From NCBI RefSeq assembly GCF_000024845.1, contig NC_013501.1, positions 1,368,001 through 1,432,000 on the forward strand: a DNA stretch of 64,000 nt, written 5' to 3'. Positions 22,643 through 36,063 of this stretch are shown in pieces. A program made the position numbers and the translations under genes. The DNA is from Rhodothermus marinus DSM 4252 (GTDB lineage: Bacteria; Bacteroidota; Rhodothermia; Rhodothermales; Rhodothermaceae). Position 1 is the first letter of the stretch, and each line of letters opens with the position of its first letter. The notes under the pieces were generated by a model. The model was not told where the DNA came from, searched no databases, and saw nothing but the letters and a program-made list of their open reading frames with translations.

Positions 22643-24238
<1,596 letters not shown>

Positions 24239-26330: not shown

Positions 26331-27098
26331 ATGTCTCTCGAACGAAAATCCGGAAGGGAAAGCGACGCCATGCTGGAGGTAGCGGAACTCCCTGTGCTGT
26401 ACCTGGACAACCACCTGCTGGTCATCAACAAGCCGTCGGGATTGCGCAGTCAGGGCGATCGGAGCGGGGCGCCGACCGTGCTCTCGCTGGGCAAGGCGCT
26501 GATCAAGGAGCGCTTCAACAAGCCCGGAAACGTCTATCTGGGGCTGGTGCATCGGCTGGATGCGCCGGTGTCGGGCGTGATGGTACTGGCCCGTACGTCC
26601 AAGGCGGCCGCCCGACTGATGCAGCAGTTCCGGGAACGCACGGTGGAAAAGGTGTACCTGGCGCTGGTGGAAGGCGAGCTGGAAGGCAGCGGCACCTGGG
26701 AGGATTTCATTGCCCCGGCCCGCGACCACATGCGTCTGGTGCCGGAAGACCATCCGTTCGGGAAACGCGCTGTTCTGCACTGGCAAGCGCTCATGACGCG
26801 CAACGGCCTGACGCTCATGCGCCTGGTGCCCGAAACCGGCCGCAAGCACCAGATCCGGGTGCAACTGGCCTTCCGGGGCTATCCCATCCTCGGCGACCGG
26901 CGCTACCGGGCGCGTCGCTGGCTGGCGCCCGGACAGATGGCACTGCACGCCTGGAAGCTGGCGCTCACGCATCCGACCCGCCGCGAGCGCATGCAGTGGA
27001 CGGCACCCGTGCCGTCCTTCTGGGACGAAGCCTTCCGGGTGCGCGTCGATCGATTGCTGGCCTATCTGGAAGCTTCCGGTCCCGAAGGCATCCGGTAA
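26331..27098 (+). CDS. RluA-family pseudouridine synthase
   Basis: The start at ATG 26331 has a GGAAGG sequence at a suitable distance and gives 255 residues; ATG 26370, also preceded by GGAAGGG, is the main alternative. The catalytic motif is GLVHRLDAPVSGVMVLART with the essential Asp, preceded by LYLDNHLLVINKPSGL and followed by GRKHQIRVQLAFRGYPILGD, all diagnostic of RluA-type enzymes that isomerise uridine in rRNA or tRNA. No S4 domain is present, so it is closer to the short RluA/TruC class. It diverges from the kinase gene and its 3' end overlaps the small convergent gene by 37 bp. Confidence 0.9.
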   Translation: MSLERKSGRESDAMLEVAELPVLYLDNHLLVINKPSGLRSQGDRSGAPTVLSLGKALIKERFNKPGNVYLGLVHRLDAPVSGVMVLARTSKAAARLMQQFRERTVEKVYLALVEGELEGSGTWEDFIAPARDHMRLVPEDHPFGKRAVLHWQALMTRNGLTLMRLVPETGRKHQIRVQLAFRGYPILGDRRYRARRWLAPGQMALHAWKLALTHPTRRERMQWTAPVPSFWDEAFRVRVDRLLAYLEASGPEGIR

Positions 27099-27373
27099 CC
27101 ATGCACTTCCTCGGCGCAGACGGCCGGGGCCGGTACGACGCAGACCTCTTCGTCGCGGAACGGATCGACCACGATGGGAATGTGCTGATAGGTCTCGAAG
27201 CGACCGGCTCCGCGCTGGAACTGCCGCCCGATTGCCTTGCACAGCCGCCGATAGGCCGTCCGACCTACCAGAATGTAGCGGGCTTCGTGCCCGGCTTCCT
27301 GCAGCTGGCGCAGGCTGTCGTGAATGAACGGCAGCATTTCGTCGTCATCCGGCGTATATTCCAGAACCGTCAT
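27062..27373 (-). CDS. Small protein resembling an isolated HK97 A-domain (Family 4 encapsulin-like), tentative
   Basis: This 103-residue protein starts at ATG 27373, preceded on its strand by AGGTTGGGG, and stops at TAG 27064-27062. Visible elements are MTVLEYTPDDDEMLPFIHDS, a helix, then ARYILVGRTAYRRLC, FETYQHIPIVVDPFRDEEVC and VVPAP. The pattern of a strand with 'residue-Tyr-hydrophobic-VG', a short helix, and IPIVVDPF followed by VCVVP resembles the A-domain of HK97-type capsid proteins. Stand-alone A-domain proteins of about 100 residues in thermophiles have been grouped as Family 4 encapsulins. This link is my inference from pattern and length and is not proven. The gene faces hemF head to head across 24 bp and overlaps the end of the pseudouridine synthase gene. 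Confidence 0.5.
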   Translation of the reverse strand: MTVLEYTPDDDEMLPFIHDSLRQLQEAGHEARYILVGRTAYRRLCKAIGRQFQRGAGRFETYQHIPIVVDPFRDEEVCVVPAPAVCAEEVHGYRMPSGPEASR

Positions 27374-27397
27374 AAGCCCCAACCTGTGTGTTGATCG

Positions 27398-28381
27398 ATG
27401 ATGATGGACGATCATGCCCGCGTCAATCGGTTGCGCGAGGAACCACGCACCGACATTCCGATGGCGCATCGCGTGCAGCGCTTTGTTGAAGCGCTGCAGC
27501 GGCACATCTGCAAGGCCATAGAAGACGTCGACGGCGCCGCGCAGTTTCGGCGCGATCCCTGGAAGTATCGCGAAGGGGGTGGGGGACTGACCTGCGTGCT
27601 GGAAAACGGTGCCGTCTTCGAAAAGGCGGGCGTCAACACGTCGGCCATCTGGGGACAACTCACAGAGCGAGCGGCCCGGGCCATCGGCGTGCATCCCGCC
27701 CCGTTTTTCGCCACGGGCCTTTCGCTGGTCATTCATCCCCGTTCGCCCTACGTCCCCAGTGTCCACGCCAACTTCCGCTACTTCGCGCTGGGTGACGACC
27801 TGTTTCACCCAGAGGATCAGTGGTTCGGTGGCGGCGCGGATCTGACGCCCTACTATCCGTTCCTGGAAGACGTGCAGCACTTTCACCGCGTCTGGAAGGA
27901 GGTGTGCGACCGGCATCCGGGCGTGGCCGACTACGCGCGCTTCAAGGCGGCCTGCGACGCGTATTTCTACCTGCCGCATCGGGGCGAAATGCGCGGGGTG
28001 GGCGGTATTTTCTACGACTACCTGCGTGACGATCCCGAAGGCGCGTTTTTCTTCACCCGGGAGGCCGGCCGCGCCTTCCTGCGCTCGTACCTGCCCATCG
28101 TCGAGCGCCGCAGGGATATGCCCTACGGCGAGCGCGAGCGGCACTTTCAGCTGCTGCGACGTGGCCGCTACGTGGAGTTCAACCTGATCTACGACCGGGG
28201 CACGCGCTTCGGACTGGAGTCGAACGGTCGCACCGAAAGCATCCTGATGAGCCTGCCGCCCGAGGTGCGCTGGCAGTACGACTGGCGTCCCGTGCCCGGC
28301 TCGCCCGAAGAGGCGGCGCTCTGGTTCTTCCAGCCGCGCGACTGGCTGGCACTGACCGAGGCCGACGTGCCGCAGCCGTAG
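27398..28381 (+). CDS. hemF: Oxygen-dependent coproporphyrinogen III oxidase
   Basis: HemF is recognised from HPRSPYVPSVHANFRYF, WFGGGADLTPYYPF, YLPHRGEMRGVGGIFYDYL, RRGRYVEFNLIYDRGTRFGL and ESILMSLPPEVRWQYDW, all in the expected order over 327 residues. It decarboxylates coproporphyrinogen III to protoporphyrinogen IX using O2, following HemE. Three ATG codons stand in tandem at 27398, 27401 and 27404, and a further candidate at 27461 lies closer to the conserved start of the family, so the true N-terminus is uncertain. The divergent small gene begins 24 bp away. Use of the O2-dependent enzyme fits an aerobe. Confidence 0.96.
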   Translation: MMMDDHARVNRLREEPRTDIPMAHRVQRFVEALQRHICKAIEDVDGAAQFRRDPWKYREGGGGLTCVLENGAVFEKAGVNTSAIWGQLTERAARAIGVHPAPFFATGLSLVIHPRSPYVPSVHANFRYFALGDDLFHPEDQWFGGGADLTPYYPFLEDVQHFHRVWKEVCDRHPGVADYARFKAACDAYFYLPHRGEMRGVGGIFYDYLRDDPEGAFFFTREAGRAFLRSYLPIVERRRDMPYGERERHFQLLRRGRYVEFNLIYDRGTRFGLESNGRTESILMSLPPEVRWQYDWRPVPGSPEEAALWFFQPRDWLALTEADVPQP

Positions 28382-28496: not shown

Positions 28497-29432
28497 ATGC
28501 AAGGTACGACGGAAGCGCGGCGCGCCTGGCGCACGCCGGAGATTGAAGAGCCGACCAATCGGTATTTCATTCATCCGCTGAGCTGGGCGCTGGTGCAGCG
28601 GCTGGCGCGCTGGGGCGTACACCCCAACACGGTCTCGCTGGTAGGACTGGCCCTGGGTGCCGGGGCCGCGGTGGCCTACTACCACTACCCGCTCTGGTGG
28701 GCCTGCGTGCTGGGCTTTCTGCTGATGATCGGCTGGCACGTCATGGACGGTGCCGACGGCCAGCTGGCCCGCCTCACCGGACGCACTTCCGAGATCGGCA
28801 AGGTGCTCGACGGCCTGTGCGACCACGGCACCTTCGTGCTGATCTACATCAGCCTGGCGCTGGCGACCTATCCGTCGGCAGGCTGGATCGCCTGGGCGCT
28901 GGCCGTACTGGCCGGCGTCAGCCATATCGTGCAGGCCAGCACCTACGAATTTCAGCGGCAGTCCTACGACTACTGGGTGCACAACAAGCAGAACGCGCGG
29001 CCGGTCACGCCTGAAGTATTTCGCGCAACGCTGGCAGAAAAGCGCGGGCTGGCCCGATGGATGGGGCAGCTCTACCTGGTCTATCTGCGCGTGCAGTACG
29101 GCGTGGGTGCGGCCGACCTGGAACTGATGGGATTGCTGGAAGAGGCGCGGGAAAAGTTCGCCTATCCCGAGAAGGCGCGGCAGATGTACCGCTACGTGCA
29201 CCGGCCGCTGGTGCGCCGCTGGGCGATCATGAGCTCGAACTACCGCACGCTGGCCATTTTCATCGCCTGCCTGTACGGCAAGCCGCTGGCTTTTTTTGTG
29301 TTCGAACTGGTCGTGCTCAACCTGATCTTTCTGCTGCTGGTTGTGCAGCTGCGGATCCGGAACCGGCGCTTCCGATTGTGGTTGCGCCGCCATCTGGAAG
29401 GAAAGCCGGCAGATGCCTGGCTGCAACGGTAA
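28497..29432 (+). CDS. CDP-alcohol phosphatidyltransferase family protein, probable CDP-inositol-using phosphoinositol lipid synthase
   Basis: The 311-residue membrane protein contains the complete family motif DGADGQLARLTGRTSEIG followed by KVLDGLCDH (D-x2-DG-x2-AR-x8-G-x3-D-x3-D) and several hydrophobic helices. The next two genes encode inositol-3-phosphate synthase and an inositol-phosphate cytidylyltransferase. As I recall, a route in R. marinus has been described in which CDP-inositol donates phosphoinositol to a dialkylether glycerol. This gene is the natural candidate for that last step. The assignment to this substrate is inference from context; the family motif is direct observation. 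A GAAGAGGAG sequence precedes the next gene, 30 bp on. Confidence 0.85.
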   Translation: MQGTTEARRAWRTPEIEEPTNRYFIHPLSWALVQRLARWGVHPNTVSLVGLALGAGAAVAYYHYPLWWACVLGFLLMIGWHVMDGADGQLARLTGRTSEIGKVLDGLCDHGTFVLIYISLALATYPSAGWIAWALAVLAGVSHIVQASTYEFQRQSYDYWVHNKQNARPVTPEVFRATLAEKRGLARWMGQLYLVYLRVQYGVGAADLELMGLLEEAREKFAYPEKARQMYRYVHRPLVRRWAIMSSNYRTLAIFIACLYGKPLAFFVFELVVLNLIFLLLVVQLRIRNRRFRLWLRRHLEGKPADAWLQR

Positions 29433-29462
29433 TTCGTTCACCATCCTGAAGAGGAGCCATCC

Positions 29463-30791
29463 ATGAGCGAAGCTGTTTCGATCGCGCCCCCGGAGGGCAA
29501 GTTGCTGGTGCTCACGCCGGGCCTGGGCGCCGTGGCGACCACGTTTATTGCGGGCGTCGAGGCGGTCCGTCAGGGGCGTGCCCGGCCCTACGGATCGCTG
29601 ACGCAATTGCAGACGATCCGGCTGGGACGCCGCTCGGCCGGACGTAACCCGCTGATCAAGGAGTTTCTTCCGCTGGCCGAACTCGACGATCTGGTCTTCG
29701 GTGCCTGGGACATCTTCCCGGACGACGCCTACGAGGCGGCCATGCGCGCGCAGGTGCTCGAAGAGCGCGACCTGAAGCCGCTCGAGGACTTCCTGCGCAC
29801 AATCCGGCCCATGCCGGCCGCCTTCGACCGCCAGTATGTGCGTCGGCTCGACGGACCTAACGTCAAAAAGGCCCGCACGAAGAAGGAGCTGGCCGAGATG
29901 CTCCGCGAGGACATCCGGCGCACGATCGAGGAGACCGGCGCCACGCGGGCCGTCATGATCTGGTGCGGTTCGACCGAGGTGTACACGCGCCCGTCGGACT
30001 GCCACCGCTCGATCGAAGCCTTCGAGGCGGGCCTGAAGGCCAACGATCCGTCGATCACGCCCTCGCAGCTCTATGCCTACGCGGCCATCATGGAGGGCGT
30101 GCCCTATGCCAACGGCGCGCCGAACCTGTCGGCCGACGTGCCCGCCCTCGAGCAACTGGCCGAGGAAAAAGGCGTGCCCATCGCCGGCAAGGACTTCAAG
30201 ACCGGCCAGACCATGCTCAAGACGGTGGTGGCGCCGGCCTTCAAGATGCGCATGCTGGGCGTGCGCGGCTGGTTCTCGACGAACATCCTGGGCAACCGCG
30301 ACGGCGAGGTACTCGACGACATCGACAGTTTCCGCGCCAAGGAGGTGACCAAGTCGGGCGTGCTCGATACGATCCTGCAGCCCGATCTGTATCCGGAGCT
30401 CTACGGCAACCTCTACCACAAGGTGCGGATCAACTTCTACCCGCCGCGCGGCGACGCCAAGGAGAGCTGGGATAACATCGACATTTTCGGCTGGATGGGC
30501 TACCCGATGCAGATCAAGATCAACTTCCTGTGTCGGGACTCCATCCTGGCCGCGCCGATTGTGTTAGATCTGGCGCTGTTTCTGGACCTGGCCGCGCGGG
30601 CCGGCCTCAAGGGCATTCAGGAGTGGCTCTCGTTCTACTTCAAGAGCCCGCATGTGCAGGAGGGCCACGTGCCCGAGCACGACCTGTTCATCCAGCACAT
30701 CCGGCTGAAGAATACGCTGCGCGTGCTGGGGGGCGAGTCGCCCATCACGCATCTGTCCGAAGAGTTCGAGCTGTACGAGAACCTGAGATGA
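29463..30791 (+). CDS. Inositol-3-phosphate synthase (myo-inositol-1-phosphate synthase)
   Basis: The 442-residue protein has the family's N-terminal NAD-binding loop (VLTPGLGAVATTFIAGVEA) and the core segments AGKDFKTGQTMLKTVVAP, RGWFSTNILGNRDGEVL, KVRINFYPPRGDAKESWDN and MQIKINFLCRDSILAAPIVLD. It converts glucose 6-phosphate to 1L-myo-inositol 1-phosphate with transient NAD use. The gene lies between the CDP-alcohol transferase and the cytidylyltransferase, and its stop overlaps the start of the latter as ATGA, so translation is coupled. A Shine-Dalgarno GAGGAG stands 6 bp before the start. Confidence 0.96.
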   Translation: MSEAVSIAPPEGKLLVLTPGLGAVATTFIAGVEAVRQGRARPYGSLTQLQTIRLGRRSAGRNPLIKEFLPLAELDDLVFGAWDIFPDDAYEAAMRAQVLEERDLKPLEDFLRTIRPMPAAFDRQYVRRLDGPNVKKARTKKELAEMLREDIRRTIEETGATRAVMIWCGSTEVYTRPSDCHRSIEAFEAGLKANDPSITPSQLYAYAAIMEGVPYANGAPNLSADVPALEQLAEEKGVPIAGKDFKTGQTMLKTVVAPAFKMRMLGVRGWFSTNILGNRDGEVLDDIDSFRAKEVTKSGVLDTILQPDLYPELYGNLYHKVRINFYPPRGDAKESWDNIDIFGWMGYPMQIKINFLCRDSILAAPIVLDLALFLDLAARAGLKGIQEWLSFYFKSPHVQEGHVPEHDLFIQHIRLKNTLRVLGGESPITHLSEEFELYENLR

Positions 30792-31543
30792 TACAGGATG
30801 GCGCAGGGCCCCGGACGGGCATTGTGCTGGCGGCCGGACTGGGTTCGCGGCTGGCCGGTGCCCGCCCGGGGTTTCAATTGAAACCCCTGACCCCGGTGGC
30901 CGGCATGCCACTGATTCTGCGCACGCTGCGGAGTGTGGCGCTGGCCGGCTGCCGGGAAGTGATCATTGTCGTGGGCTACCACGGCGAGGAGGTGCAGGAG
31001 GCGGTCCGCCGGCACTACCGCGGGCCGCTTCGGGTGCACTTCGCCCACAACCCGCATTACAAGCTGCAGAACGGCCTGTCGGTGCTGGCCGCGCGGCCGT
31101 ACGTGAAGGAGGCGCCCTTTCTGCTCACCATGGCCGATCACGTGCTGGGGGACGAACTCATGGCCCTGGTACGCACGCATCGGCCCCCGGCAGACGGCGC
31201 CACGCTGCTGGTGGACTACCGCATCGACCAGATCTTCGACCTGGACGACGCCACCAAGGTGCGCGTCGAGGACGGCTGGATCGTGGACATCGGCAAGCAC
31301 CTGACCGACTTCAACGCCATCGACACGGGCGTTTTCGTCTGTACCTTTGCGCTGATGGACGCGCTGGAGGCCGTCTACCGGGAGCAGGGCGATGCGTCGC
31401 TCTCCGACGGCGTGCGCCGACTGGCCCGCGTCCGCCGCATGGCCGCGCTCGACATCGGCGACGGCTTCTGGCAGGACGTCGACACGCCTGAGATGCTCGC
31501 CTACGCCGAGCGCCGCCTGCTGGAAATGGCCCGATCCGAATAA
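30788..31543 (+). CDS. CTP:inositol-1-phosphate cytidylyltransferase (IPCT-like nucleotidyltransferase)
   Basis: The ATG at 30788 overlaps the previous stop (ATGA) and gives 251 residues. The protein is a sugar-nucleotidyltransferase-fold enzyme with GIVLAAGLGSRL, then LKPLTPVAGMPLI, NPHYKLQNGLSVLAA and FLLTMADHVLGDEL. The NG-S and M(A/G)DHV motifs are those of the IPCT half of archaeal IPCT/DIPPS enzymes. It should make CDP-inositol from CTP and inositol 1-phosphate. In hyperthermophiles this domain is often fused to the transferase; here the two functions sit on separate genes with the synthase between them. A strong terminator follows at once. Confidence 0.88.
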   Translation: MIQDGAGPRTGIVLAAGLGSRLAGARPGFQLKPLTPVAGMPLILRTLRSVALAGCREVIIVVGYHGEEVQEAVRRHYRGPLRVHFAHNPHYKLQNGLSVLAARPYVKEAPFLLTMADHVLGDELMALVRTHRPPADGATLLVDYRIDQIFDLDDATKVRVEDGWIVDIGKHLTDFNAIDTGVFVCTFALMDALEAVYREQGDASLSDGVRRLARVRRMAALDIGDGFWQDVDTPEMLAYAERRLLEMARSE

Positions 31544-33411: not shown

Positions 33412-34743
33412 ATGACGCCCCGGCAGTTTCTGAAGCACTACCGATACGACGAGCGTCTGGTTCGTGGCGGGTATTTCCCTTCGGCACCGCTTACGGTCGA
33501 TCCTGGGGAGACGGTGGGTGTGGTGCTGCTCAATCTGGGCGGGCCCGAGCGCGTGGAGGATGTGGAGCCCTTCCTCTATAACCTGTTCATGGACCCGGCC
33601 ATCATCGACATCCCGCTGAAGGGCATTGCCCGTCACTGGCTCTGCCGCCTGATCGCCCGGCTGCGTGCGAAGAAGGTGGGCAAAGACTACGAGATGATCG
33701 GGGGCGGCTCGCCGCTGAATCGACTGACGCGGGAGCAGGCGCAGGCGCTGGAACGGTTGCTGAACCGGCGCTTCGGGCAGCCGGCCGGGGTGCATTTCCG
33801 CACCTATATCGCCATGCGCTACTGGCATCCGTTCAGCGAGGAGGCGGCCGCGCAGATGCAGGCCGAAGGGGTGGACAAGGTGGTGTTGCTGCCGCTCTAT
33901 CCGCAGTATTCCAAGACGACCACCGGCTCGTCGCTGCTTTACTGGTGGACGCTGGAGCAGACGGGCGAAATTCCGCGCTGGCCCACCACCTACGTGTACG
34001 AATACGCGGCGCATCCCAAGTACATTCAGGCGCTCAGCGAGCGGATCGACGAGGCGCTGCAGCGCTTTCCGAAGTCCGTGCGCTCCGAGGTGCACCTGGT
34101 CTTCAGTGCGCACGGCACGCCGCTTGTCGAGATGAAGGAGCGGCGCGATCCGTACTGCTGCCTGATCCACTCCACGGTGGATCGGGTGATGGCCTACCGG
34201 AAGCATGACCTGCCCTACCACGTGTCGTTCCAGAGCAAGGTGGGGCCGGGGGAGTGGCTGACGCCGAGCACGCCCGACAAGCTGGCCGAGCTGGCGCAAC
34301 AGGGCGTGCGGGCCGTGCTGATGGTGCCGGTGGCGTTCGTGACCGACCATATCGAAACGTCCTTCGAGCTGGACATCGAAGTGCGGGAAGAGGCCGAGCA
34401 GTTCGGCATTATCCATTACGAAGTGATGCCGGCGCTCAACTGCCACCCGCTGTTCATCGAGGCGCTGGCCGAGGTGACCGTGGCGCAGCTCCGGCTGCCG
34501 GTGCCGCCCGAGACGGCCGGTGTCGCAGGGGATGGAGCGCCGGCCACGACGCCTTATTCGATCCGTCCGCTCGACGAACTGCCCCGCTACCATCCACGCG
34601 TGCGCAAGACGCGTTGCCACCAGTGCGAGCACATCACCGAGGCGCGGTGCTGGATTCCCTCGGAGTGCGAGCCGGCACCTGAGAACGCCGAAAGCACGGC
34701 GCCGCCGAAGCCTTCCGTTCATTCCAAACGGCCTGCTTCGTAA
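33412..34743 (+). CDS. hemH: Ferrochelatase with a cysteine-rich C-terminal extension
   Basis: The protein is recognised as HemH from VGVVLLNLGGPERVEDVEPFL, GGGSPLNRLTREQ, YPQYSKTTTGSS, HLVFSAHGTP, YHVSFQSKVGPGEWL and MVPVAFVTDHIETSFELDIE; the metal-site His lies in FSAHGTP and a Glu in HIETS. It inserts Fe2+ into protoporphyrin IX. At 443 residues it exceeds the 310-360 usual for bacteria: the last 60 residues include Cys402, Cys405, Cys413 and Cys419 (spacing C-x2-C-x7-C-x5-C), which could hold an iron-sulfur cluster or zinc, followed by a low-complexity tail. hemL follows after 6 bp. Confidence 0.95.
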   Translation: MTPRQFLKHYRYDERLVRGGYFPSAPLTVDPGETVGVVLLNLGGPERVEDVEPFLYNLFMDPAIIDIPLKGIARHWLCRLIARLRAKKVGKDYEMIGGGSPLNRLTREQAQALERLLNRRFGQPAGVHFRTYIAMRYWHPFSEEAAAQMQAEGVDKVVLLPLYPQYSKTTTGSSLLYWWTLEQTGEIPRWPTTYVYEYAAHPKYIQALSERIDEALQRFPKSVRSEVHLVFSAHGTPLVEMKERRDPYCCLIHSTVDRVMAYRKHDLPYHVSFQSKVGPGEWLTPSTPDKLAELAQQGVRAVLMVPVAFVTDHIETSFELDIEVREEAEQFGIIHYEVMPALNCHPLFIEALAEVTVAQLRLPVPPETAGVAGDGAPATTPYSIRPLDELPRYHPRVRKTRCHQCEHITEARCWIPSECEPAPENAESTAPPKPSVHSKRPAS

Positions 34744-34749
34744 GGAGCG

Positions 34750-36063
34750 ATGCAGCTGTCGCGGAGTCGGGCGCTTTTCGAGCGGGCCCAACGGGTAATC
34801 CCGGGCGGTGTCAATTCGCCGGTCCGTGCCTTCGGTAGCGTGGGCGGCACCCCGCCGTTCATCGCACAGGCACAGGGCGCCTACATCGAAGACGTCGACG
34901 GCAACCGCTACATCGACTACGTCGGCTCCTGGGGGCCGATGCTCTTCGGCCACGCCGATCCCGACGTGGTGCGGGCCATTCAGGAAGCGGCTGCGCGTTC
35001 CCCTTCGTTCGGCGCGCCCACCGAGCTGGAAGTGCGCGTGGCCGAACTCATCTGTGAGCTGGTGCCGTCGATCGAAATGGTACGGCTGGTCAACTCGGGC
35101 ACCGAGGCGACCATGAGCGCCGTGCGCCTGGCCCGCGCCTACACGGGGCGTCCCAAGATCATCAAGTTCGAAGGGCATTACCACGGGCACGCCGACTTTT
35201 TCCTGATCGCGGCCGGAAGCGGAGCGCTCACCTACGGCCAGCCCAACTCGCCGGGCGTGACGCCGGGCACGGCGCAGGATACGCTGCTGGCCCGCTTCAA
35301 CGATCTACAGCACGTCGAGCAACTGGTGGAAGCCAACGCCGGTGAGGTGGCCGCCATCATTCTGGAGCCGGTGGCCGGCAACATGGGCTGCGTGCCGCCG
35401 GAGCCAGGCTTCCTGGAAGGACTGCGGGCGCTCTGCGACCGACACGGCATCCTGCTCATCTTCGACGAGGTGATGACGGGCTTCCGGGTGGCACGAGGCG
35501 GGGCACAGGAACGCTACGGTGTGCTGCCCGATCTGACCACCCTCGGCAAGGTGATCGGCGGCGGGCTCCCGGTGGGGGCCTACGGCGGACGGCGCGAGAT
35601 CATGGAGTACGTCGCGCCGAAGGGACCCGTCTATCAGGCCGGCACGCTGTCGGGCAACCCGCTGGCCATGGCGGCCGGCTATGCCGTGCTCCGGAAGATC
35701 GCCGACACGCCGGATCTGTATGAGCGGCTGGAACGCTTTGGCGCTGCGCTGGAGGAGGGCGTCCGCGAAAACCTGAAAGGGCTGGGGCTGGATCTGTACT
35801 TCACGCGCGTGGGCGCCATGGCCACGCTGTTCTTCACGTCGGAGCGCGTCGTGGATTACGAAACGGCCCGCCGCTGCGACACCCGGCGCTTCGCCCGCTA
35901 TTTCCACGCCATGCTGGAAGAGGGCATCTACCTGCCGCCGTCTCAGTTCGAGGCGTTTTTCTTTTCGACGGCCCACGGCGAGCGCGAGCTGGAACAGACG
36001 CTCAGCGCCCAGCGCCGGGCGCTTGCGCGCGTTTTCGCCGACGACGGCGACGACGCGGCGTAG
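34750..36063 (+). CDS. hemL: Glutamate-1-semialdehyde 2,1-aminomutase
   Basis: The 437-residue protein shows the HemL sequence from [21 protein letters not shown] through [13 protein letters not shown], the PLP-region [16 protein letters not shown] and the PLP lysine in [18 protein letters not shown]. It makes 5-aminolevulinate in the C5 pathway. It forms an operon with hemH, so the cluster pairs the first committed and the last steps of haem synthesis. The 3' end overlaps the convergent rnr gene by 62 bp. Confidence 0.96.

What the first reader, a model, noticed from the sequence alone, without database searches (positions are those of the whole stretch)
27062..27373. Candidate Family 4 (A-domain) encapsulin-like protein next to hemF
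A 103-residue protein, facing hemF head to head, has the strand-helix-strand pattern of an isolated HK97 A-domain (ARYILVGRTAYRRLC ... HIPIVVDPFRDEEVC ... VVPAP). Its size equals that of stand-alone A-domain proteins reported from thermophiles. If right, R. marinus may form a small-subunit assembly, and the 24-bp intergenic space would tie it to haem synthesis. The link to encapsulins is inference.
Basis: inference. Interest (0 to 1): 0.62.

Follow-up and report, generated by a model that had tools for sequence, protein, structure and literature searches.

The report
Known one-domain capsid-like protein (encapsulin 4C)
The small protein beside a haem-making gene is a real, conserved one-domain version of a virus-capsid fold, already catalogued as a "Family 4C encapsulin"; what it does is unknown, and its place beside haem genes looks like inherited gene order rather than a dedicated partnership.

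Summary
The gene at 27062-27373 (minus strand, 103 aa) is real. It is conserved across the order (32 of 60 related genomes) and under strong purifying selection within the genus (dN/dS about 0.02-0.08). It matches NCBI's curated "family 4C encapsulin" model over its whole length at 176 bits (cut-off 90). AlphaFold2 gives a confident model (pLDDT 92). Its best structural match is the Family 4A crystal structure 2PK8 (Z 9.7); the other listed matches are HK97-fold phage capsids and encapsulins. It is also already published: Andreas & Giessen 2021 (PMC8346489) report Family 4C in Rhodothermus and note haem genes nearby.

Two corrections emerged. Family 4C is not confined to two genera; it occurs in 9 of 15 sampled families of this order. 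And the haem link is mostly inherited gene order: the block rluA-hemF/hemH-hemL is intact in relatives that lack the A-domain gene, and the gene persists in genomes where it lies away from haem genes or where no ferrochelatase was found. Shell or ring assembly is untested. The most likely working mode is a small oligomeric scaffold or adaptor for an unidentified client, not a haem-enzyme compartment.

The parts
27062..27373 (-). Family 4C A-domain encapsulin-like protein, 103 aa
   Evidence: NF041192.2 at 176.4 bits, cut-off 90; AF2 model pLDDT 91.9 with best PDB match 2PK8; dN/dS about 0.02-0.08
27398..28381 (+). hemF, oxygen-dependent coproporphyrinogen III oxidase, divergent neighbour
   Evidence: PF01218 at 410.9 bits
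26217..27098 (+). RluA-family RNA pseudouridine synthase, convergent neighbour; its 3' end overlaps the A-domain gene by 37 bp (the true start may lie downstream of 26217)
   Evidence: PF00849 at 114.6 bits; same neighbour in most homologous loci
27374..27397 (.). 24-bp space between the two divergent start codons; promoters of either gene must overlap the other's coding sequence
   Evidence: sequence; one weak promoter-like match on the minus strand at 27426-27398
33412..34680 (+). hemH (ferrochelatase), further along the same haem block
   Evidence: PF00762 match at G000:C1:1401514-1402482; extent from tblastn in L098, converted to window coordinates
34747..36033 (+). hemL (glutamate-1-semialdehyde aminomutase), next to hemH
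   Evidence: tblastn in L098, converted to window coordinates

Best explanation
It is a bacterial Family 4C encapsulin-like protein: a stand-alone HK97 A-domain (shown by profile match and predicted fold). Most likely it works as a small self-associating scaffold or adaptor that binds a client enzyme, as proposed for archaeal Family 4 proteins, rather than as a closed shell, because the P-domain and E-loop that hold HK97 shells together are missing (inferred). It is transcribed divergently from hemF, from its own promoter (inferred from the gene layout). Its position between rluA and hemF/hemH is an old inherited arrangement and does not by itself identify haem enzymes as its clients (supported by comparison of loci).
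For: Curated 4C model: 176 bits for this protein; all 33 aligned homologues match it, 17 also weakly match 4A and 9 match 4B. 20 of 33 weakly match Pfam ENCP4, and a few weakly match Linocin_M18 or a phage capsid model. A profile of the family finds 2PK8 at E 2e-4. AF2 pLDDT 91.9, pTM 0.84. Foldseek best hit 2PK8, prob 1.00, TM 0.62. VIA-align: 2PK8 Z 9.7, rmsd 2.6, 82 aligned; then HK97-fold capsids and Family 1 and 2 encapsulins at Z 5.5-7.7. Haem neighbourhood: rluA directly upstream of hemF/hemH, with measurable gaps of 107-185 bp or less, in nine relatives lacking the gene; presence of the gene is independent of hemF (Fisher p 0.80) and 5 carriers have no ferrochelatase found. P. furiosus GAPDH forms a stable complex with its A-domain partner, as cited in PMC8346489.
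Against: The adaptor role is inferred from archaeal relatives and from missing domains; no oligomer was modelled or measured. Z values of 5.5-7.7 to full capsids are middling. Head-to-head pairing with hemF or hemH is kept in 19 of 33 homologues, so some coupling to haem synthesis (for example shared regulation) is not excluded.
Confidence: 0.6

Rival explanations
1. A dedicated haem-synthesis partner: the A-domain protein forms rings or small shells that hold HemF or ferrochelatase, protecting reactive porphyrin intermediates.
For: Divergent pairing with hemF or hemH in 19 of 33 homologues across seven families; haem genes near bacterial members noted in PMC8346489.
Against: The haem block is intact in genomes lacking the gene; the gene is away from haem genes in families f9 and f12, while in f9 hemF and hemH stay clustered elsewhere; five carriers have no ferrochelatase found; no association with hemF (p 0.80). 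The C-terminal extension of the ferrochelatases is also present in genomes without the gene, so it is not a specific cargo tag.
Confidence: 0.12
2. A true closed nanocompartment built only from A-domains, with an unknown cargo.
For: HK97 A-domain fold; family name and hypothesis in PMC8346489.
Against: The P-domain, E-loop and N-arm are absent (103 aa in all); the one solved relative, 2PK8, crystallised as a dimer (the authors suspect the tag). I found no report of a Family 4 shell in the papers held.
Confidence: 0.08
3. A domesticated A-domain with an unrelated function of its own (for example RNA or ligand binding linked to the neighbouring pseudouridine synthase).
For: rluA is a convergent close neighbour in about as many homologues as the haem genes, including f2 and G033 loci without an adjacent haem gene.
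Against: rluA is on the opposite strand and is absent nearby in f9 and f12; rluA stays beside haem genes when the A-domain gene is missing.
Confidence: 0.2

Closest known systems
Family 4C A-domain encapsulins (NCBIfam NF041192; Andreas & Giessen 2021, PMC8346489)
   Same: Full-length match at nearly twice the curated cut-off; same genus named in the paper; haem genes nearby also noted there
   Different: Nothing in the protein; the present survey finds the family more widely in this order than the two genera stated
Family 4A protein PF0899 of Pyrococcus furiosus (PDB 2PK8)
   Same: Same fold, Z 9.7 over 82 residues, 22% identity
   Different: 4A genes lie downstream of hydrogenase or OsmC genes in operons; this gene is divergent from hemF and not in an operon with an enzyme
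HK97-fold major capsid proteins and Family 1 encapsulins
   Same: The A-domain superposes (Z 5.5-7.7)
   Different: Those are full-length HK97-fold proteins with P-domain and E-loop that form closed icosahedral shells; this is the A-domain alone

Membership tests
Family 4C encapsulin (NF041192) | Score above the curated cut-off of 90 bits over the full model | tested here: met
   176.4 bits, residues 1-97 on model 1-97 of 97
Family 4 (A-domain) encapsulin | About 100 aa, HK97 A-domain fold with no other HK97 domains | tested here: met
   103 aa; AF2 model best matches 2PK8 and then A-domain parts of HK97-fold proteins
Archaeal Family 4 operon types | Operon with an enzyme gene directly upstream (archaeal members only) | tested here: not met
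   hemF is divergent and rluA convergent. The defining paper exempts bacterial members, which it lists as orphan
Encapsulin in the strict sense | Self-assembly into an icosahedral shell | not testable with these tools
   No multimer prediction or biochemistry available
Encapsulin in the strict sense | Dedicated cargo with a targeting peptide | tested here: inconclusive
   No conserved operon partner; the ferrochelatase C-terminal extension occurs with and without the gene
Family 1 encapsulin (PF04454) | Match to Linocin_M18 above cut-off | tested here: not met
   No Pfam match for this protein; no PF04454 match in the genome

The most novel reading that the evidence does not exclude
A bacterial A-domain ring or scaffold that handles haem-synthesis enzymes or porphyrin intermediates, co-regulated with hemF through a shared divergent promoter region, and retained in some lineages for other clients after the genes separated.
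Probability: 0.1. Interest if true: 0.6.

Novelty: already known. Interest (0 to 1): 0.27.

Why it matters
Family 4 encapsulins are among the least understood encapsulin families, and no function is known for the bacterial ones. This window gives a clean, testable bacterial member. The comparison shows that haem neighbours are weak evidence for its role, and that the family is spread more widely in the order than reported, which should redirect the search for its client.

Tried and rejected
Pfam and PHROGs gave nothing significant for the single protein. Single-sequence search of PDB sequences gave only chance hits; the family profile was needed to find 2PK8. tblastn in phage records gave no match. 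The overlapping plus-strand frame was rejected as a gene: in several relatives it is cut by stops. A ferrochelatase C-terminal cargo tag was considered and rejected because the extension also occurs in genomes without the A-domain gene.

Full report
Observation. The minus strand of 27062-27373 encodes a 103-aa protein with the quoted motifs. HemF (PF01218) faces it head to head, with 24 bp between the start codons. An RluA-type pseudouridine synthase (PF00849) converges on it and overlaps its 3' end by 37 bp. The gene is real: it has homologues in 32 of 60 related genomes. Within the genus dN/dS is about 0.02-0.08, and variable columns fall 87/18/12 on codon positions 3/1/2.

Identity. The protein hits one NCBIfam model, NF041192 "family 4C encapsulin nanocompartment shell protein", at 176.4 bits against a cut-off of 90, over the full model. 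All 33 aligned homologues match it; 17 also match the 4A model and 9 the 4B model, weakly. Twenty match Pfam ENCP4 weakly, and a few match Linocin_M18 or a phage capsid model weakly. A profile of the family finds the Family 4A crystal structure 2PK8 at E 2e-4.

Fold. AlphaFold2 on the 33-sequence alignment gives pLDDT 91.9 and pTM 0.84. Foldseek ranks 2PK8 first (prob 1.00, TM 0.62; E 7.6e-3), with many phage capsids below it among weaker hits. VIA-align gives 2PK8 Z 9.7; the other 49 listed entries are phage capsid proteins (one titled only as a phage-related protein) and encapsulins, at Z 5.5-7.7. Those Z values alone would be middling, but the list is uniform and covers nearly the whole model. 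In viral predicted structures several small phage proteins of about 90-130 aa also resemble it.

Haem link. In 19 of 33 homologues hemF, or hemH where hemF is not present, is the divergent neighbour (locus L046 was read from its sequence). In relatives without the A-domain gene the block rluA-hemF-hemH-hemL (or rluA-hemH) is often intact, with rluA directly upstream on the same strand. Measurable gaps are 107-185 bp (in three cases the longest open frames overlap), too short for the gene, and a sensitive profile search found no remnant in any of the 20 comparison stretches. In families f9 and f12 the A-domain gene lies elsewhere; in f9 the hemE-hemF-hemH-hemL cluster remains intact without it. 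Four f2 genomes and one f12 genome carry it with no ferrochelatase found (some of these genomes are incomplete). Presence of the gene is independent of hemF (Fisher p 0.80) and of hemH (p 0.20) (the genomes are related, so these p values are only indicative). The simplest reading is that an ancestor of the order had the gene between rluA and the haem genes, on the opposite strand, and that several lineages lost or moved it. This reading is inferred; no gene tree was reconciled.

Function. Andreas & Giessen 2021 (PMC8346489) name Rhodothermus and Rubricoccus as bacterial carriers, call the bacterial members orphans, note nearby haem genes, and suggest scaffold, chaperone or compartment roles; they cite a stable GAPDH/A-domain complex in P. 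furiosus. I think a small oligomeric scaffold or adaptor is most likely, because the domains that close HK97 shells are absent. That step is inference. The window's genome has no Family 1 encapsulin.

Distribution. The paper states that bacterial members are limited to two thermophilic genera. Here the family occurs in 9 of 15 sampled families of the order, and in 14 of 394 genomes drawn across the phylum, all from this order. Named contigs with relatives come from varied Rhodothermales and Bacteroidota metagenome bins. The growth temperatures of those organisms were not tested here.

Verdict. The finding is already known, its assembly is untested, and its haem association is best read as inherited gene order.

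Noticed in passing
28497-31543: Between hemF and hemH lie a CDP-alcohol phosphatidyltransferase, a myo-inositol-1-phosphate synthase and a nucleotidyltransferase, a set that would fit CDP-inositol-based inositol lipid or di-inositol phosphate synthesis. It is at this place in the genus but not in the other families' haem blocks examined.
   Followed up: partly
L061:7545-8849 and similar loci: Ferrochelatases of this order are about 430-450 aa, with roughly 75 residues beyond the HemH domain; the extension is present with and without the A-domain gene.
   Followed up: partly
no window coordinates; BFVD entries A0A127AW84, A0A6J5S046, A0A6J5PB30: Small uncharacterised phage proteins (92-128 aa) resemble the stand-alone A-domain, so one-domain HK97 A-domain proteins may exist in phages too.
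   Followed up: no
22985-24133 (-): ORF with a zinc-ribbon and the overall look of a TnpB/OrfB-type transposon protein (from its translation; not searched).
   Followed up: no
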